From Robiginitalea sediminis (GTDB lineage Bacteria; Bacteroidota; Bacteroidia; Flavobacteriales; Flavobacteriaceae): a stretch of 64,000 nt of DNA. The stretch is taken from positions 1,229,332 to 1,293,331 of the forward strand of contig NZ_NGNR01000001.1 of assembly GCF_002198115.1 (NCBI RefSeq), given 5' to 3'. Both the position numbers and the translations under genes were made by a program. Below are positions 6,443 to 12,628 of this stretch, piece by piece. Every line of letters starts with the position of its first letter. The first letter of the stretch is position 1. The notes beneath the pieces were generated by a model that worked only from the letters and a program-made list of their open reading frames with translations, was not told where the DNA came from and did no database searches.

Positions 6443-6607
6443 AAGTTTTTTGATACTAATTTGGAAGCAAAAAGGGGTGTAAATCCCGGTTTGATGCCAC
6501 CGTTATACAGGGGATGTAGCATCGCGCGTCCTGCCCGAACGAATTGAAAGAGGAAAAGCCAGGTTTTGAGGATGGGACGGGAATTCCTCGTTCCTTCGGA
6601 ACTTCGC

Positions 6608-6713
6608 GAGTCCCGCCCGAACGTGTTGAAGAAGGTATGTCAGTTATTGGAAGACGGGAATTACCTCTCCCGATAGCTATCGGGATCGGTGAGTCCCGCC
6701 CGAACGTGTTGAA
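6608..6713. repeat. 23-bp direct repeat pair
   Basis: The same 23 bases (beginning GAGTCCCGCCCGAACG) occur at 6608-6630 and 6691-6713, 83 bases apart. A degenerate third copy (CTGCCCGAACGAATTGAA) lies near 6532-6549. The interval between the copies contains the 18-bp palindrome described separately. Origin unknown, perhaps tRNA-derived. Confidence 0.7.
6668..6685. repeat. 18-bp palindrome TCCCGATAGCTATCGGGA, copy 1
   Basis: A perfect palindrome. The identical 18 bases occur again at 12500-12517 inside a broken tRNA-Gly copy, so it behaves as a small dispersed repeat associated with tRNA debris. Confidence 0.8.
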
Positions 6714-6721
6714 AATAAAAA

Positions 6722-6835: not shown

Positions 6836-6856
6836 GTACTCGGGACGGGACTTGAA
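6836..6856. repeat. Left attachment site copy (attL core)
   Basis: These 21 bases are identical to 12241-12261, the last bases of the tRNA-Leu gene. The flanks differ on both sides. This is the orphan tRNA 3' end left at the far side of the insert. Confidence 0.9.
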
Positions 6857-7041
6857 TATAAGTGATATACAATCGACCCAAGGCTTAGTGAGTATGCGGG
6901 ATGTACTGGTATAAGGCCTGCTATGATGAATTTTAGACATCTTTGACATGTAGTGCATACTATTTCCTGGTGGATTATAATTTGGCAAATATGTTAGGAA
7001 GACGTTAGGAAATATGATAAATTAAGGCCAAGCAAAAATAG
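6857..7041 (+). promoter_or_regulatory. Left end of element: integrase upstream region with paired repeats
   Basis: GTTAGGAA occurs at 6993-7000 and 7004-7011, an 11-bp period that places both copies on one face of the helix. They lie 30-50 bases before the integrase start and after a TAATTTGG promoter-like element. They could be arm-type integrase sites or an autoregulatory operator. No gene is seen in this stretch. Confidence 0.45.
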
Positions 7042-8346
7042 ATGGCCATGGCTAAAATTAAGTGCAGACTAAAAACCAACGCTACCAATGCATCTATATT
7101 CCTTCAACTGTCAATGGGCAGAGGAAAAGTATACGAGCGTAAAACGGGCTGGAATATTGATTCACGGGCATGGAGTAAGGAAACAGGCTACCCTAAGCAG
7201 AACTTAGCCGAACATAAGAAATTGGCCCAGGATATAAAGGGCCTGGAGTTAGCCATTTACAAAGAGATAAACAAAGCAGAGACAAAGGGGGATATTATCG
7301 ATGGTAATTGGTTGTCAGATTGCATAGATGTCTTCTTTGGCCGAAAATCTGAAAAGGGATATAGTGAGTCGGTTATATTCTGGATAGACCACATTTTAGA
7401 AAATGCAGAATTGCGGAGGAACTCTAAGGGAGGTCTTGGCCTTAGTAAAAGTAGGATCCAACAATACAAGCAACTAAAGGACAAGTTTGCAGAGTTTCAA
7501 GGCAATAAGAGCATTAGAATAAAAGAAATAGACCAGGCTTTAGGTCAGGAGTTTTTTCGGTTTCTCTACAAGACTAAGAACTATAGCGAATCCTACTCCC
7601 TAAAAATATTAGAAAATCTTAAATCCGTGTGCTATGAAGCGGGGATGTATGTTGAGGTCTCACCTCAACTTAGAAAGATAAAAAGCGGTAAAGTAAAAAG
7701 TAAGTTTATCGTCTATTTAAGCCCTGAAGAATTAAAGAAAATTGCTGATGCTCCCATAATGTCCCCTCATTTAATTAATGCCCGTAAATGGCTTATTTTG
7801 GGTTGCTGGGTAGGGCAAAGGGGAAGCGATTTACTGAAAATGACAGAGGACTCCATAAAGGAGGAAAAGGGATTTAAATACTTCCAAATAATACAAGGCA
7901 AAACGGGCAAGAGGATTCAGGTTCCTTTATTACCAGAAGCACAAAGGATCATAGAAACCGGATTTCCTCATAGAATAGCCATCCAAAATCTAAACAACTA
8001 TATAAAAGAAGTAGGCAAAATAGCAGGTATTGACCAATCAATTAAAGGCAGTAAGAAGGATCCCGCAACCAACCGAAAGGTAGAGGGAACTTATCCTAAA
8101 TATGAACTTTTAGGCACCCACGTATGTAGGCGTTCATTTTGCACAAATCTCTATGGAGAATTACCAACCCCGGTAATAATGCAGGCTTCAGGTCATAGCA
8201 CGGAAAAGGTGTTTTTGGGGTATATAGGTAAGTCAGGAGTAGTAGGCTTTAGAGAGCATTGGCAAAGACTAATGGATCGGCATATAAACAAAGAGAGGAA
8301 TACGCCTCAATTGAAAATAATCACTAAATCCACAAGCGGCACATAA
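7042..8346 (+). CDS. int: Tyrosine recombinase (integrase) of the element
   Basis: The product has 434 residues: an N-terminal Arm-binding-like region (about 1-85), a SAM-like core-binding domain (about 90-205) and a C-terminal catalytic domain. The catalytic set is visible: Arg260 in GQRGSDLLKM, Lys287 in QGKTGK, His360-x2-Arg363 in HVCRRSF, His385 in SGHSTEKV and the nucleophile Tyr394 in LGYIG. It should catalyse integration at, and excision from, the tRNA-Leu 3' end through the 21-bp att core. A second ATG at 7048 is an equally possible start. It resembles the integrases common in Bacteroidetes mobile elements. Confidence 0.93.
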   Translation: MAMAKIKCRLKTNATNASIFLQLSMGRGKVYERKTGWNIDSRAWSKETGYPKQNLAEHKKLAQDIKGLELAIYKEINKAETKGDIIDGNWLSDCIDVFFGRKSEKGYSESVIFWIDHILENAELRRNSKGGLGLSKSRIQQYKQLKDKFAEFQGNKSIRIKEIDQALGQEFFRFLYKTKNYSESYSLKILENLKSVCYEAGMYVEVSPQLRKIKSGKVKSKFIVYLSPEELKKIADAPIMSPHLINARKWLILGCWVGQRGSDLLKMTEDSIKEEKGFKYFQIIQGKTGKRIQVPLLPEAQRIIETGFPHRIAIQNLNNYIKEVGKIAGIDQSIKGSKKDPATNRKVEGTYPKYELLGTHVCRRSFCTNLYGELPTPVIMQASGHSTEKVFLGYIGKSGVVGFREHWQRLMDRHINKERNTPQLKIITKSTSGT

Positions 8347-8384
8347 TCAGCATTGTATCTCGACAACATCAATAATAACTATGC

Positions 8385-8402
8385 TGTTAATAATGTTAAT
8401 AA
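8385..8402. repeat. Perfect 9-bp tandem repeat TGTTAATAA
   Basis: Two head-to-tail copies lie at 8385-8393 and 8394-8402, just after the integrase stop. A second short direct repeat, TAGTGGT, occurs nearby at about 8426 and 8437. They could be iterons, excisionase sites or arm sites. Confidence 0.5.
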
Positions 8403-8456
8403 ATAAGTTTTATACCGCAAGTGCATAGTGGTATCTTAGTGGTGCCTACAATGAAA

Positions 8457-8494
8457 AAAGGCGAAGTCCTACGTAGGCAGGAGCAACGCCCTTT
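8457..8494. other. Nested hairpin, possible replication origin or RNA regulator
   Basis: An outer stem AAAGGCG (8457-8463) with CGCCCTTT (8487-8494) encloses a perfect palindrome CCTACGTAGG (8468-8477). It lies between the integrase and the excisionase/replication genes. A stem-loop there is where a rolling-circle origin or a leader regulating the downstream operon would be expected. A 25-codon frame across it is not convincing as a gene. Confidence 0.4.
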
Positions 8495-8562
8495 GAAAAT
8501 AAAGCACTTCAAAGATACTGTTCCTTAAGGACTTTGCCATAACATTTTAATGCTTTTTAAAT

Positions 8563-8742
8563 ATGGCAAACGAAGAACTAAACGAAAGGTTCCTTACACG
8601 ACGTGAGGTTGCTGAAAAATTCCGTGTAAACGAATCTACGGTTTACAGATGGCGGCAAAAGGGGATAATTAAGGCCTATGGAATCCAAGGCCGAGTCCTC
8701 TATAAGCAAAGCGAAATCCAAAAGCAACTTATAGAACTTTAA
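8563..8742 (+). CDS. Small MerR/excisionase-type helix-turn-helix protein
   Basis: A 59-residue protein. RFLTRREVAEKF-RVNESTVYRWRQKGIIKAYGIQGRVLYKQSEI is the classical HTH_17/excisionase pattern: a helix-turn-helix followed by the K-Y-x-IxGRxLY wing. In mobile elements such proteins direct integrase towards excision or regulate the early operon. It lies between the integrase and the replication genes and ends 11 bases before the next start, suggesting an operon. AAGG occurs in the leader, but no strong ribosome site is seen. Confidence 0.85.
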   Translation: MANEELNERFLTRREVAEKFRVNESTVYRWRQKGIIKAYGIQGRVLYKQSEIQKQLIEL

Positions 8743-8753
8743 AAACTCCGGTC

Positions 8754-9158
8754 ATGGGAAAAATTCCAAGGCCGGTGATCCATCTATACGATGAGGTCAG
8801 CCCTGGCAAATTTGCCACGGTACGGCATTTTCAGTTGTGTGAAACAGTATCTAAACCGCCTGCACTTTCTCCCCATCTCAACATTGCAGAGAATAGGAGT
8901 TTTGCAAAATCCAACCCTGTTTATTGGGTAAAAGAAAGGATAGGTAGTGTCTGGTCTAAAAAGGCCTTAACGGGGATATGGAAGGCGCCTGTGGACGGGT
9001 TCTTTTACGGGGATTCCAACAGAAGGCAAAACCTTTTACTATTTCAGTTTGTAGGGGAGCATTTAAGGGTGTATTTCTTTCGGGATTACTATACCCGAGA
9101 TATATCGTCTGTTATACAGAGTCTTGCCGGTACTTCGGGACATGGTCTAAGAAATTGA
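8754..9158 (+). CDS. Unknown 134-aa protein of the replication operon
   Basis: I do not recognise a family. The product is 134 residues, basic and aromatic-rich, with no membrane segment or signal. It is placed tightly between the excisionase-type gene (11-bp gap) and the replication-type gene (18-bp gap) on the same strand. A role as replication accessory or single-strand-binding-type partner is conceivable from position only. Confidence 0.65.
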   Translation: MGKIPRPVIHLYDEVSPGKFATVRHFQLCETVSKPPALSPHLNIAENRSFAKSNPVYWVKERIGSVWSKKALTGIWKAPVDGFFYGDSNRRQNLLLFQFVGEHLRVYFFRDYYTRDISSVIQSLAGTSGHGLRN

Positions 9159-9176
9159 GACAGTCCAGGACGTACA

Positions 9177-10079
9177 ATGGTAGATTACCTAAAAGCAGAC
9201 GTTTTAGGCATGTCTCCCGATGTGCTAAAGTCAAATGGGCTATTAGACTTCAATACCCAGGTTTCTTTAAGAACTGGAGTATTGGGGTCTTTTGCCCAGG
9301 CTTTTTATAATGGGTTGAAGTTCCGTGTATATGAGCCTACAGATACATACCCTATGGGTAGAGTCACGATAGAAGGTAGCCTACATAAATACTGGAATGA
9401 TGGGCGTCATAACTATAATGATTTTAGTCTAAAAGGGAATCACCAGGCGTTATCAGACATTCAAACGAGGTTTAGCATATCGCCACAACAAATTTCGCTA
9501 AGACAACTTGAATTAGGACTGAATCTTTCAATTGACCATAGCCCTGAAGCAATTATAAAAAACATGATGTTCCACAGAACCGATAGGATATGCAGCCCAA
9601 TTCCGAGTCATCGTGGCACCTATTTTCACGTTGCCAGAAGCCAGAAAGTGCTAAAATGGTATAATAAGTCGAAGCACATGAATAGCAGCGGTATAAAGGC
9701 TCCGGAAAACCTATTCCGTATGGAAAACAAATACCTAAAGATGGCTGAAATCAACGGAATGGGTATTTATTCCCTATCGGATCTTATTTGTGCCGATTTG
9801 CCATGCCTGGTTGAAAATATCCTACTAAGAGAATGGGAGGGGGTAATTTATTATGATGAAAGGGCCCTTGAAGGGCATAAGCACAAAGAGCAATACGGAA
9901 ACCTACGCTTTTGGGAAGGTCTGAAGTACGAGAACTTTAAATACCACAGGAAGCAACTAAAAAGAATTTATACCGATAATCCGCAATGCGTTAAAGAAAT
10001 CATCAGGCGTAAGATCGTAGAAAAATGCAGGCAGTTAAATGACTATACTACCGAAATTGACACTTTATGTATAAGGTAA
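9177..10079 (+). CDS. Putative replication initiator, filamentous-phage gpII/X or RstA-like
   Basis: The product has 300 residues. It opens with MVDYLKADV, recalling the MIDxL starts of phage gpII/X proteins. It continues with VTIEGSLHKYWNDGRHNYNDFS, which resembles the VEGNPxRxxxxDNxFG segment of RstA-like initiators, followed by QLELGLNL, comparable to their conserved RxExR/L strand. These parallels are from memory and weak individually, so the call is tentative. If right, the protein would nick the element at a double-strand origin and start rolling-circle replication after excision. It is the third gene of a compact plus-strand operon. Confidence 0.55.
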   Translation: MVDYLKADVLGMSPDVLKSNGLLDFNTQVSLRTGVLGSFAQAFYNGLKFRVYEPTDTYPMGRVTIEGSLHKYWNDGRHNYNDFSLKGNHQALSDIQTRFSISPQQISLRQLELGLNLSIDHSPEAIIKNMMFHRTDRICSPIPSHRGTYFHVARSQKVLKWYNKSKHMNSSGIKAPENLFRMENKYLKMAEINGMGIYSLSDLICADLPCLVENILLREWEGVIYYDERALEGHKHKEQYGNLRFWEGLKYENFKYHRKQLKRIYTDNPQCVKEIIRRKIVEKCRQLNDYTTEIDTLCIR

Positions 10080-10183
10080 ATTCCGGTAGTGATTATGAAT
10101 ACGACTCTTATTTGTACGAATCAAGCCAAAGCAGCCTTTAAGATGTGATTATTCTAAATGGAAACAAAAGGCATATACATTAT

Positions 10184-10333
10184 TCAAATGTCGTCCTCAT
10201 CGGACTCACTAAACATAGCGTCCCAATGTTTTTTTGCACCCTTGAACAAGAAGGCAACAATGAAGATGGCTAATAGGATTGACCCTCCAATAACATACTC
10301 CATATGATATTTTTTTGGAAAATTATAGGACAT
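10184..10333 (-). CDS. Small membrane protein
   Basis: A 49-residue protein with one strong transmembrane segment (about residues 13-30, YVIGGSILLAIFIVAFLF), then a basic stretch GAKKHW and an acidic tail SESDEDDI. I start it at the ATG at 10333, which has AAGGAT/AAGG 10-15 bases upstream. A longer frame begins at 10393, but that would leave only 11 bases to the divergent gene. Size and layout resemble small holins or filamentous-phage coat-like proteins, but this is only a shape similarity. Confidence 0.5.
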   Translation of the reverse strand: MSYNFPKKYHMEYVIGGSILLAIFIVAFLFKGAKKHWDAMFSESDEDDI

Positions 10334-10404
10334 GAAAGCCTTATCCTTGCGGTAATCCGTAAAGACTATATTCTTACAAGGTTGAATAATCAAAAAAAAT
10401 CAAA

Positions 10405-10671
10405 ATGAGCCGTGGAGGTGTAAGACCTGGAGCCGGAAGGAAATCCAAGGCTGAAGAACAAGAGTTAGTAGAGAAATTAAGCCCTTTAGAGCCAATAGCC
10501 TTTAAAGCACTTACAGAAGCCCTGTCAGAGGGCCAGAGATGGGCTGTAAGGCTCTATTTTGAATATATGTATGGTAGACCTGCACAACAGGTTAATCGTA
10601 GTGAGTTTGTTGAGCAGCCATTGTTCGGGGATATTGAAATAAGGAGGGAAGTTGTATATAAAGAAATATAA
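10405..10671 (+). CDS. Small DNA-binding-type protein with RGGxRPGAGRK motif
   Basis: An 88-residue soluble protein. The N-terminal SRGGVRPGAGRKSK is a motif often found at the start of phage small-terminase-like and mobile-element proteins. The rest (LTEALSEGQRWAVRLYFEYMYGRPAQQV) resembles the helical core seen in such proteins. This suggests a DNA-binding role in the element. It is divergent from the small membrane protein and ends three bases before the stop of the convergent cargo gene. The exact function is unknown. Confidence 0.6.
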   Translation: MSRGGVRPGAGRKSKAEEQELVEKLSPLEPIAFKALTEALSEGQRWAVRLYFEYMYGRPAQQVNRSEFVEQPLFGDIEIRREVVYKEI

Positions 10672-10674
10672 TTG

Positions 10675-11319
10675 CTATAACCCTCCAAAGGGATCTTCAT
10701 AATCAATGAAATCTTCTGGTTTATACCATTTTAATACATAAGAGCAATTACAACCCAAATCACCAAATGGCTTTTTGGTACAATTATTCGGTATCGGTCT
10801 TGATTCAATCAATTCTTCAATTGTAAACCTTTTTCCCTTTTGAGACCTTCCAAAATCGCAGTATTCATCTTGGCAAGTAATCTCAATTCCCCATTCTTCT
10901 GGATTAGTTTTTTGGTTTAACTCTATTTTATAAAGAGTAAGTAATTCACTATTCGCTTTTGTTAAATAATCAATTGGACTAACTCCCTCATATTTCGCTA
11001 CAAACTCGCCCATAGCCCTATAAGTGAACCAATTCTTAAAGTGTATCTCCTTCCTGTCCCTATTGACATCGTTCTCCAGGACTCTCTTAAACATACCCAT
11101 TACTATTTTCCTTAATTCCGGCGGACCATTTTCATATTCCTTATCCCAAGCCATCAACTGGTACAAAGTATCCTCCCAATAATCATTGAAATTTTCAAAA
11201 TCATTTCTTCTTTCAAGAAAATAAGACCAGTTAAAATTTACATAACCTTTATCCAGGTATCTGCTAAATAATCCGCCGTAGTCCCGAACAACCTTTTGAA
11301 TGGTTAGTTTTTCAGTCAT
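10675..11319 (-). CDS. Unknown Cys-rich cargo protein A (paralogue of 11580-12206)
   Basis: A 214-residue soluble protein with no recognised family. The C-terminal part contains Cys149, Cys154, then RS-x-K-x2-RF-x-I, NNCTKKP (Cys180) and Cys190-x-Cys192, a likely metal-binding knuckle. The same order and spacing recur in the other cargo protein: C-x3-RS-x-K-x2-R[FY]-x-I-[DE], N[ND]C, C-x-C. Both also share a FVxxYEGxS segment upstream, so the two are diverged paralogues. The pattern faintly resembles the C-terminal cysteine motif of Mu gpF/SPP1 gp7-like head proteins (inference). It is on the minus strand, opposite to its paralogue, with a divergent 260-bp spacer between them. Confidence 0.75.
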   Translation of the reverse strand: MTEKLTIQKVVRDYGGLFSRYLDKGYVNFNWSYFLERRNDFENFNDYWEDTLYQLMAWDKEYENGPPELRKIVMGMFKRVLENDVNRDRKEIHFKNWFTYRAMGEFVAKYEGVSPIDYLTKANSELLTLYKIELNQKTNPEEWGIEITCQDEYCDFGRSQKGKRFTIEELIESRPIPNNCTKKPFGDLGCNCSYVLKWYKPEDFIDYEDPFGGL

Positions 11320-11579
11320 ATTGCATGAATCTAAATATCAATCAAAATAAAGTTAACCATATTGTACTCTTTGAGTCCAATACGGTCGCGTTTATTATGA
11401 AGAATTTACTTCAGGAATGATGAGTGCCATCAACGCCTTATTTTATGGCTATGGCCAAAATGTAATTACATTGTAGGCTTCGCACTAAATGTTGAGGGCT
11501 TTAAAGTGGATTCGGTTCTTTTAAACCTTATGGAAAGGTGCTGGGAGGCTGTTTCTATTGATTCGTAAACCTATCCTAA
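11320..11579. other. Divergent spacer between the two cargo genes
   Basis: The 260 bases hold the promoters of both cargo genes. A stretch at about 11415-11569 is open for some 50 codons on the plus strand with protein-like composition (ending GFALNVEGFKVDSVLLNLMERCW... then a stop) but has no start codon. It may be the remnant of an older gene. Confidence 0.35.
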
Positions 11580-12206
11580 ATGAAAGAATTTACCCTGAAA
11601 AGAGGTTGGAATAGAAATAAGCATCTTTTTAAAGTTGTGTTAGGTTGGGACTGGGCTGATCTTGAAACGGATTACAAATCCCTAAAAATGAAGAAGGATA
11701 TATCCGAAAAGGACTATTTCTGGGGTTTGTTAAACCGAATGCTGGTTAGGTCCGATGATGACACTCAGAATATACATTCTCTTAATAAGAGCATTTACCT
11801 CACAATGGCCTGGTTTGTTCATTGGTATGAAGGTAAATCTGGCCTGCCATACTCCAGGCTTATGATTCAGGCCGAAATAATGGACTGTAAATTTGGTCAT
11901 ATTCCCAATAGTCACGTGATGTACGAAATTGCAGTTATTCCGGATCCAGAATGTACATATGCGCGAAGTTTAAAAGACACAAGATACCCTATAGATGTTG
12001 ATGACATTCCTTTGGCAACAAATGACTGTTTACGTCCAGTATGCCGATGTTGCCTAAGCGTGGTCCCAAAAAGGGACGAAAACGGGCGACTTGTTTTTAA
12101 AAACAGGCCCTCAAATGGGGAGTTAGTTACAAAAGTGCCCGAAAGAATAGGTTTTTGGGCTATGGTTCGGAAGATGTTAGGAAAAAATAATAAAACAAAC
12201 CCCTAA
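11580..12206 (+). CDS. Unknown Cys-rich cargo protein B (paralogue of 10675-11319)
   Basis: A 208-residue soluble protein. Residues 78-87 (WFVHWYEGKS) and the C-terminal knuckle Cys125-x3-RS-x-K-x2-RYPI, NDC (150), Cys155-x-Cys157-Cys158 align with cargo protein A. After the knuckle it has a 50-residue basic tail (ends MVRKMLGKNNKTNP) that A lacks. Placement at the very end of the element next to attR, AT-rich codon use and divergent pairing with its paralogue are typical of accessory cargo. Function unknown; defence, superinfection control or a structural decoy are all open possibilities. Confidence 0.75.
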   Translation: MKEFTLKRGWNRNKHLFKVVLGWDWADLETDYKSLKMKKDISEKDYFWGLLNRMLVRSDDDTQNIHSLNKSIYLTMAWFVHWYEGKSGLPYSRLMIQAEIMDCKFGHIPNSHVMYEIAVIPDPECTYARSLKDTRYPIDVDDIPLATNDCLRPVCRCCLSVVPKRDENGRLVFKNRPSNGELVTKVPERIGFWAMVRKMLGKNNKTNP

Positions 12207-12236
12207 AAACTTGTTTATAAAGTCAATAGGGGTTTG
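12196..12236 (-). terminator. Element-supplied terminator behind tRNA-Leu
   Basis: CAAACCCCTA (12196-12205) and TAGGGGTTTG (12227-12236) form a perfect 10-bp inverted repeat around a 21-base loop. On the minus strand it is followed by TTTTATT. It lies five bases beyond the tRNA-Leu 3' end and would replace the original terminator now 5.4 kb away. Confidence 0.55.
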
Positions 12237-12240
12237 AAAA

Positions 12241-12261
12241 GTACTCGGGACGGGACTTGAA
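12241..12261. repeat. Right attachment site copy (attR core) within tRNA-Leu
   Basis: The 21 bases are identical to 6836-6856 and cover the 3' end of the tRNA: acceptor strand and 3' side of the T arm. Because they match, the tRNA stays functional after insertion. Confidence 0.9.
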
Positions 12262-12326
12262 CCCGTACGGCCACAATGGCCATTGGATTTTAAGTCCAAC
12301 GTGTCTACCAATTCCACCACCCGAGC
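12242..12326 (-). tRNA. tRNA-Leu (anticodon UAA)
   Basis: An 85-nt class II tRNA on the minus strand. It has D-arm GGTGGAATTGGTAGACAC, anticodon stem TTGGA/TCCAA around loop CTTAAAA giving anticodon TAA, a long variable arm (TGGCCATTGTGGCCGT) and T-loop GTTCAAGTC. The acceptor GCTCGGG pairs with CCCGAGT (a G-U first pair). CCA is not encoded. Its 3' end is the insertion point of the integrative element. Confidence 0.95.
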
Positions 12327-12484: not shown

Positions 12485-12528
12485 AAGGTGGCGCTCTACT
12501 CCCGATAGCTATCGGGAAGCTATTTTCG
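12485..12528 (-). pseudogene. tRNA-Gly 5' fragment split by an 18-bp palindrome
   Basis: AAGGTGGCGCTCTAC (12485-12499) and AGCTATTTTCGC (12517-12528) repeat the 5' half of the neighbouring tRNA-Gly. In place of the intervening CAACTG sits the palindrome TCCCGATAGCTATCGGGA (12500-12517). This looks like a broken tRNA duplicate carrying a small repeat. The other bases between tRNA-Gly and mutS show no gene. Confidence 0.7.
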
Positions 12529-12628
12529 CATGTCAATAAGTCTTGATGCTCCCGAAGGATGCGGATGCAAATTTAATACATTTTGGGGAAAAGCAAAGAA
12601 CTTTTTGGCGAAAAAGGAAGGTTCTGGA

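What the first reader, a model, noticed from the sequence alone, without database searches (positions are those of the whole stretch)
6836..12261. Small integrative element in tRNA-Leu with no packaging or conjugation genes
The 21-bp att repeats, tyrosine integrase, excisionase-type protein and replication-type protein define a 5.4-kb element with exact boundaries. It keeps replication and mobility functions but no capsid, large terminase or relaxase, so it must depend on a helper or on vertical spread. Its gene set (int - HTH - unknown - Rep-like - small TM - GRK protein - cargo pair) does not match a satellite family I can name.
Basis: partly seen in the sequence, partly recalled or inferred. 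Interest (0 to 1): 0.7.

Follow-up and report, generated by a model that had tools for sequence, protein, structure and literature searches.

The report
Small tRNA-integrated, rolling-circle mobile element
A 5.4-kb mobile DNA element sits in a transfer-RNA gene of a Bacteroidota bacterium; it belongs to a family of small elements with one shared core (an integrase, a small regulator and a rolling-circle replication enzyme) and interchangeable cargo that is often anti-phage defence, and how such elements move between cells is still unknown.

The parts
6836..6856 (.). distal att core (21 bp), next to the original downstream terminator of tRNA-Leu
6993..7012 (+). putative integrase arm-type site, tandem GTTAGGAA words with 11-bp period, 157 bp inside the distal att
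   Evidence: score 14 against a maximum of 11 in 60 shuffles; 20 of 26 elements exceed all their shuffles
7042..8346 (+). tyrosine integrase, 434 aa
   Evidence: Pfam PF00589 2e-7, PF13102 2.9e-7; phrog_216 1.2e-18
8347..8562 (+). non-coding stretch with predicted DNA folding, candidate regulatory/origin region (weak)
   Evidence: fold z-score -2.34, 3 of 200 shuffles fold as well; no hairpin seen to be shared among 20 loci (by eye)
8563..8742 (+). HTH protein, excisionase/AlpA/BldC-like, 59 aa (about 90-100 aa in most relatives)
   Evidence: HTH_17 6.7e-12; phrog_66 3e-10; BldC model 5.9e-9, below its cut-off
8754..9158 (+). u134, 134-aa protein of unknown function, found between HTH and Rep in part of the family
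   Evidence: no family; matched in L063, L080, L084, L086, L087, L088 and L097
9177..10079 (+). Rep: Rep_trans/G2P-superfamily rolling-circle initiator or relaxase, 300 aa
10184..10393 (-). small membrane protein ORF (49-69 aa depending on start; membrane helix judged by eye)
   Evidence: only weak family matches (E 0.03-0.06)
10405..10671 (+). GRK protein, 88 aa, basic N terminus; cargo
   Evidence: one relative (E 3.1e-4) in 199 family genomes, beside a c208 relative
10675..11319 (-). c214, cysteine-containing cargo protein, homologue of c208
   Evidence: hhalign 92.9%, E 3.7e-7
11580..12206 (+). c208, cargo protein with conserved C-x-Y-x-x-S ... C ... C-x-C
   Evidence: 4 further genomes of 199, one of them a stop-ridden match at E 8e-4; alignment of 4
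12165..12184 (+). putative integrase arm-type site, 76 bp inside the proximal att (overlaps the 3' end of c208)
12196..12236 (.). hairpin next to the tRNA, probable replacement terminator carried by the element (inference)
   Evidence: inverted repeat I18, arms 82% complementary; similar-looking hairpins at the three other occupied sites (by eye)
12241..12261 (.). proximal att core = 3' end of tRNA-Leu
12241..12326 (-). tRNA-Leu(taa), integration target, left intact

Best explanation
This is a helper-dependent integrative element of an apparently undescribed Bacteroidota family. Shown by sequence: it is inserted at the 3' end of tRNA-Leu, and its core is int - HTH - (u134) - Rep. Inferred: the HTH protein sets or aids excision; Int, bound at paired arm-type sites, recombines the two 21-bp cores to release a circle and restore the original site; Rep nicks the circle with Y162, the metal held by D3/E112/E183, and drives rolling-circle replication. 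Inferred and least certain (about 0.4 on its own): the nicked strand leaves the cell through the type IV secretion system of a co-resident conjugative element, with Rep acting as relaxase, as Rep_trans proteins do in streptococcal IMEs. The slots beside Rep hold exchangeable cargo, in relatives often anti-phage genes and here the GRK/c214/c208 set, which might repay the host for carrying it. The confidence given is for the identity and the excision/replication steps; the rivals compete over transfer.
For: Ends and empty sites. Rep fold and active site (residues from passages of PMC4797284): spacings E112-Y162 = 50 and Y162-E183 = 21, against D142-Y191 = 49 and Y191-E214 = 23 in RepDE; D3 would fall on D46, as the aligned ranges start at 1 and 44. 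One Rep-profile member, L135 in G011, with int upstream and an HTH-looking gene that my HTH profile did not match, passes PF05144 Phage_CRI; 2 of 50 members match it at E 0.01. Family: 44 of 397 genomes, 14 of 198 (one of the 14 matches only model positions 302-390), 24 loci from a named collection. After removing two duplicates, 51 of 68 loci have int upstream on the same strand and 46 of 68 have int and HTH. Of 28 loci, window included, with int upstream and an antisense t/tmRNA downstream, 25 have a direct repeat of 14 bp or more at its 3' end. Arm sites: 20 of 26 exceed all 60 shuffles. Cargo. A TraG-type conjugation gene lies in the same genome (G000:C9). Rep_trans as IME relaxase: passages of PMC7563843.
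Against: No oriT or double-strand origin was found. Rep is not associated with conjugative TraG across genomes: 14 of 44 Rep-positive genomes against 111 of 397 overall, Fisher p 0.59, phylogeny not corrected; so 30 of 44 hosts lack that helper gene. No coupling protein family was matched in the element. No reads or circular form were seen; an exact junction probe found nothing in viral contigs. Int and Rep distances are only weakly correlated (rho 0.13, p 0.09), so the core is not clearly inherited as one unit. 17 of 68 loci show no int upstream within reach, 3 of the 28 have no repeat by the rule used, and 6 of 26 elements do not beat their shuffles for arm sites. The window Rep itself matches neither PF02486 nor PF05144.
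Confidence: 0.72

Rival explanations
1. Phage satellite: on infection or induction of a helper phage the element excises, replicates by rolling circle and is packaged in stolen capsids, comparable in size and anatomy to PICI/PICMI-type satellites or the jumbo-phage-carried tmRNA islands of Pseudomonas; the HTH or GRK protein might redirect packaging.
For: Int, AlpA/excisionase-like HTH, defence cargo and t/tmRNA target are the same gross anatomy as islands transduced by jumbo phage (PMC12595487, abstract and passages). The HTH protein weakly matches small-terminase families (best 4.1e-4). One relative, L011, carries a TerL-like gene downstream of Rep (phrog_2, 6.5e-39). One of 124 cargo proteins matches a baseplate-hub family (1.2e-19).
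Against: No terminase, portal or capsid family among the 25 families shown for 124 cargo proteins (51 further families not shown). TerL of the phrog_2 kind is not associated with Rep: 2 of 44 against 18 of 397, p 1.0; other TerL families were not tested. GRK has no TerS match; its relative matches only an unknown PHROG. No relative of Rep in IMG/VR viral contigs in two scans, which depend on short conserved patterns. The one phage record with a clear match (MT835707.1) looks like an ICE region.
Confidence: 0.25
2. Satellite of a filamentous (inovirus-like) phage, like RS1 of CTXphi: Rep is a G2P/RstA-type initiator and the ssDNA is exported through a helper inovirus.
For: Inovirus replication proteins are the best viral structural matches (1.4e-7, 2.7e-7), and 2 of 50 family members match Phage_CRI.
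Against: No Zot or coat family matched in the element. Related elements of 10-12 kb and cargo genes of 900-1200 aa and a dedicated integrase are unlike RS1 (recalled). Inoviruses as helpers were not searched across the genomes; the one strong Phage_CRI hit outside this family (G012 contig C18, 8.9e-53), with a Zot-like neighbour recognised by eye, is on a 6.7-kb contig of an 80%-complete genome and may be contamination.
Confidence: 0.08
3. Integrating rolling-circle plasmid without a dedicated transfer route: it maintains itself by excision and replication and moves rarely by transformation or generalised transduction; many copies are fixed genomic islands.
For: No helper association of either kind tested; some relatives are decayed (stops in the Rep of L010 and in int and Rep of L068); the Rep is absent from the nine other genomes of the genus, so rarity or loss is common.
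Against: Att geometry and Rep active site are kept across divergent members, and targets range over eight tRNA kinds and tmRNA, which points to continuing mobility.
Confidence: 0.2

Closest known systems
Streptococcal IMEs with a Rep_trans relaxase (IME_oriT and relatives; PMC7563843, PMC5704250, passages read)
   Same: Integrase, direct-repeat ends, one Rep_trans-type protein as the replication/mobilisation enzyme, no mating-pair genes
   Different: Firmicutes; relaxase recognisable as Rep_trans; 53 of 64 IME_oriTs insert in ICE oriT. The 2017 review says the few Bacteroidetes IMEs then known encode canonical relaxases. Relaxase activity untested here
pT181/RepDE-type plasmid initiators and inovirus G2P (Rep_trans PF02486, Phage_CRI PF05144)
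   Same: Fold, acidic triad, R/K-x-Y-x-K and R-x-E motifs
   Different: The window protein falls outside both Pfam models; the element is chromosomal with an integrase
tmRNA islands I23/I44/I55 of Pseudomonas (PMC12595487, abstract and passages)
   Same: t/tmRNA target, short direct repeat, IntY, AlpA, defence cargo, no transfer genes
   Different: I55 is moved by jumbo phage; no Rep_trans-type protein is mentioned in the passages read; different phylum
PICI / PICMI phage satellites (recalled, and a reference line in PMC11389934)
   Same: Compact, int, HTH regulator, replication gene, defence cargo
   Different: No primase-type replication protein recognised; only weak small-terminase resemblance of the HTH; helper phage unknown
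Bacteroides IMEs NBU1, NBU2, Tn4555, Tn4399 (PMC5704250, passages)
   Same: Bacteroidota, integrated, helper-dependent
   Different: MobP relaxase; no canonical relaxase family matched in the window element

Membership tests
tRNA-targeted integrative element | tyrosine integrase plus direct repeats at a tRNA 3' end, with an empty site in relatives | tested here: met
   (5 of 9 same-genus genomes empty)
Rep_trans/G2P superfamily of rolling-circle nicking enzymes | TBP-like fold shared with RepDE/RepSTK1 | tested here: met
Rep_trans/G2P superfamily of rolling-circle nicking enzymes | catalytic tyrosine in R/K-x-Y-x-K, metal acids on separate strands, R-x-E | tested here: met
   against residues in PMC4797284; correspondence by motif and spacing, not residue-level superposition
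Rep_trans (PF02486) or Phage_CRI (PF05144) as Pfam families | match to the model | tested here: not met
   window Rep none; PF05144 in 2 of 50 relatives, PF02486 not listed for any of the 50 at E 0.01
IME | own integrase, no mating-pair formation genes | tested here: met
IME | relaxase and/or oriT used for mobilisation by a conjugative helper | tested here: inconclusive
   Rep is of a class that includes relaxases, but no oriT was found and there is no helper association
IME | transfer by conjugation | not testable with these tools
   needs mating assay
PICI-type phage satellite | primase-type replication protein (definition recalled) | tested here: not met
   no primase family listed for the eight ORFs; replication protein is Rep_trans-like
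PICI-type phage satellite | TerS or packaging-redirecting gene (definition recalled) | tested here: inconclusive
   HTH protein weakly matches three TerS families (4.1e-4 to 5.2e-3), well below its excisionase match; GRK none
PICI-type phage satellite | induction and packaging by helper phage | not testable with these tools
   no lysate data
Inovirus or RS1-like satellite | Zot/pI ATPase (inovirus) | tested here: not met
   no match in the eight ORFs; a coat protein could go unrecognised
Inovirus or RS1-like satellite | G2P/RstA-type initiator | tested here: met
   fold only: BFVD 1.4e-7, 2.7e-7

The most novel reading that the evidence does not exclude
A phylum-wide family of Bacteroidota elements in which a single Rep_trans/G2P-like enzyme serves as both replication initiator and conjugative relaxase. 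They would be non-canonical IMEs in a phylum where, by the 2017 review read here in passages, only canonical-relaxase IMEs were known, and would act as standard carriers of anti-phage systems. The paralogous c214/c208 cargo, of which c208 also lies beside the tRNA in another element type, would then be an undescribed defence system.
Probability: 0.3. Interest if true: 0.75.

Novelty: new variant of a known kind. Interest (0 to 1): 0.56.

Why it matters
Small helper-dependent elements are suspected to explain many genomic islands with unknown mobility (PMC11389934, passages), and those described are mostly from Proteobacteria and Firmicutes (impression from the papers opened). This core gives a searchable signature (Rep profile, arm sites at about 150 bp and 76 bp, t/tmRNA ends) for a Bacteroidota counterpart. 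It makes two questions testable: whether a Rep_trans-like enzyme can work as a relaxase outside Firmicutes, and whether the cargo slots of these elements can be mined for new anti-phage systems.

Tried and rejected
Sequence families for Rep, u134, GRK, c214 and c208: no meaningful hits in Pfam, PHROGs or NCBIfam; PADLOC none for u134, the membrane ORF, GRK, c214, c208. Solved-structure sequence search for Rep: nothing useful. IMG/VR viral contigs: no relatives of Rep or c208. Phage records: one Rep match at 27.5% identity, 3e-10 (MT835707.1, ICE-like on inspection by eye) and one at 0.2; none for c208 or GRK; plasmids none for Rep. I considered c208/c214 as phage Mu gpF-like minor head proteins from the C...CxC pattern (recalled); no family search supported it, and the c214 model was poor (pLDDT 43.7), so it was dropped without a fold search. 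A conserved origin hairpin was looked for in 20 loci and none was seen to be shared. phrog_2 hits in the genus (5.8e-8 to 4.7e-6, one each in all 10 genomes, ORFs of 318-343 aa, plus one of 6.1e-4 in G007) were read as PhoH-type cross-matches (inference), hence the stricter cut. Int-Rep co-inheritance: rho 0.13, p 0.09 over 26 elements, L068 left out.

Counting rules and rows dropped. Of 49 places, 39 were fetched with wide flanks and two were already held (own, G039); eight were not in the counts (G099, G186:C3, G234, G249, G121, G037, G105:C400, and G011, fetched later as L135). The repeat search looked from 900 bp before int to 9.5 kb after Rep, kept the three longest repeats a locus, and had no shuffled control; by own arithmetic about 0.03 exact 14-mers are expected anywhere per locus for uniform bases. 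The 26 elements were chosen by hand: they include L097 and L105, whose repeats look like tmRNA ends without a tmRNA call there, and omit L076; L009 had no exact repeat. Arm-site search windows reached about 230 bp from each core, so larger distances could not appear. The 397 genomes are taken to be one set from equal counts and handles.

Papers: seven opened. Abstract and outline of PMC12324425; abstract, outline and passages of PMC12595487; passages of PMC4797284, PMC7563843, PMC13107129, PMC5704250 and PMC11389934. Others were seen as search listings only. That this family is not in print rests on searches of one open-access library.


Full report
1. Observation. The two 21-bp copies (6836, 12241) are identical and the second is the 3' end of tRNA-Leu(taa). 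Between them lie int, HTH, u134, Rep, a small membrane ORF, GRK, c214 and c208, at 36-41% GC against richer DNA to the right and, from 3 kb on, to the left. Eight of the nine other genomes of the genus hold the core at this tRNA. Five show the uninterrupted site: their sequence left of the core aligns with the window's left flank (scores 30.5-36.5; shuffles at most 8.5) and not with the element's right end. Three carry other DNA there, so the site is reused; in G005 (L026) an integrase-like fragment and HTH gene recognised by eye lie more than 17 kb upstream of the core, and no second core was found in the stretch fetched, so that element is not delimited. The Rep gene is absent from all nine.

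3. A family. A profile of six Reps matches 44 of 397 Flavobacteriaceae genomes; one of 24 matches 14 of 198 genomes across the phylum, one of them only in the C-terminal part of the model. A scan of a named collection gave 24 loci, among them Polaribacter, Salegentibacter, Flavobacterium, Tenacibaculum, Emticicia, Lacihabitans, Saprospirales and Bacteroidales. Of 68 distinct loci read, 51 have int upstream on the same strand, 55 have the HTH within 1.5 kb upstream of Rep, 46 have both, and 43 of these 46 have an ORF of 100 aa or more between int and HTH; the window element is one of the three that do not (gene list). Of 28 loci, window included, with int and an antisense t/tmRNA downstream, 25 have a direct repeat of 14 bp or more at that RNA's 3' end, giving elements of 5.4-11.8 kb, median 7.9 kb, in tRNA-Leu, -Asn, -Met, -Ala, -Phe, -Cys, -Asp, -Arg and tmRNA.

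4. Att anatomy. The window has a tandem word pair, GTTAGGAAGACGTTAGGAAA, 157 bp inside the distal core, and a near copy 76 bp inside the proximal core. Of 26 elements tested, 20 have a shared word that beats all 60 shuffles; it lies 118-168 bp inside the distal and 61-100 bp inside the proximal core, and in most of the 20 it is a tandem pair of about 11-12 bp period with other letters in each element (by eye; L064 has a single word). The other six (L008, L068, L072, L079, L081, L113) do not beat their shuffles. Shared position with unshared sequence is what element-specific integrase arm sites would give (inference). The element also has its own hairpin next to the tRNA, probably replacing the terminator that integration pushes away (inference).

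5. Cargo. Scanned cargo of relatives includes Dnd, type IIG restriction, SoFic, patatin and YobI/Tmn families (lists cut at 25). Of ten large proteins beside Rep given singly to PADLOC, six have strong matches: Tmn (L064), type IIG (L074, L100), Druantia DruF/L (L083), type I HsdR (L092) and Dnd/Pbe (L079). Two have weak mad8 matches (L059, L068) and two none (L067, L072). These ten were chosen for size, so this is not a rate, and L059, L067, L083 and L092 are not delimited by repeats. The window's cargo is different: c214 and c208 are homologues, of no known family. c208 relatives occur in 4 other genomes of 199, one of them stop-ridden. In G211 a GRK relative and a c208 relative sit side by side next to a tRNA-Leu, in another element whose Rep-like protein carries the same motifs. 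In G203 a c208 relative lies in an island inside a comM-like gene (gene named by eye). They behave like mobile cargo; a defence role is a guess by association.

6. How it moves. Excision and rolling-circle replication follow from the parts but are not shown. For transfer, the literature offers two models: Rep_trans proteins of streptococcal integrative elements proved to be relaxases (PMC7563843, passages), and a tmRNA island of Pseudomonas with defence cargo is carried by jumbo phage (PMC12595487). The window's genome has a conjugation TraG and no strong phrog_2 TerL. But across 397 genomes Rep is associated with neither: TraG 14 of 44 against 111 of 397 (p 0.59); TerL 2 of 44 against 18 of 397 (p 1.0). 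No origin was found. The HTH's weak small-terminase resemblance and the TerL beside one relative's Rep speak for the phage route. I lean to the conjugative route because the only nicking enzyme is of a class with proven relaxases, and because a relative sits in an ICE-like record (MT835707.1, judged by eye); the lean is slight.

7. Verdict. Real, exactly bounded, and a member of a widespread family that seven searches of an open-access library did not turn up. As a kind of thing, a small helper-dependent integrative element, it is known; the combination of phylum, Rep type and att geometry is a new variant. The host is probably Robiginitalea-like (GC, genome size; inference, not tested).

Noticed in passing
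window 6522-6718: Three 82-83-bp-spaced repeats resembling tRNA T-arm/acceptor ends (GTCCCGCCCGAACG; resemblance by eye) just outside the element; pieces of this stretch recur several times near tRNA-Leu in G007 (L015) and in some other genus members.
   Followed up: no
L105 3050-15314: Two Rep genes, apparently two elements in tandem before a tmRNA, in a Tenacibaculum MAG; the far end of the second was not checked. L117 also holds two Rep genes.
   Followed up: partly
L011 5511-7595 (-): A relative in G071 has a TerL-like gene (phrog_2, 6.5e-39) downstream of Rep with two small ORFs between; no other terminase was noticed among the neighbours scanned.
   Followed up: partly
G000:C9:334090-336474: TraG-type conjugation gene (Bac_Flav_CT_G, 7.7e-99) in the window's genome; 2 of 10 genus genomes, own included, have one.
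   Followed up: partly
L144 (MT835707.1): A deposited 'Bacteriophage sp.' record from human faeces holds three integrase matches (one a 61-aa fragment), a 1982-aa protein, three HTH matches, Rep and an RHH-like small protein, and looks like an ICE region (nature judged by eye).
   Followed up: partly
L132 5056-9843: Another small tRNA-Leu element with a different integrase and a Rep-like protein with the same motifs that carries the GRK-c208 pair.
   Followed up: partly
L131 31-11974: Island with recombinase-like genes, an 877-aa protein and a c208 relative splitting a comM-like gene in G203; c208 also lies beside a comM-like gene in G109 (L130) (genes named by eye).
   Followed up: no
window 12499-12533: A 19-bp palindromic sequence also present at 6667, followed by a 16-bp near-copy of the tRNA-Gly 5' end region, beside the tRNA pair.
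   Followed up: no
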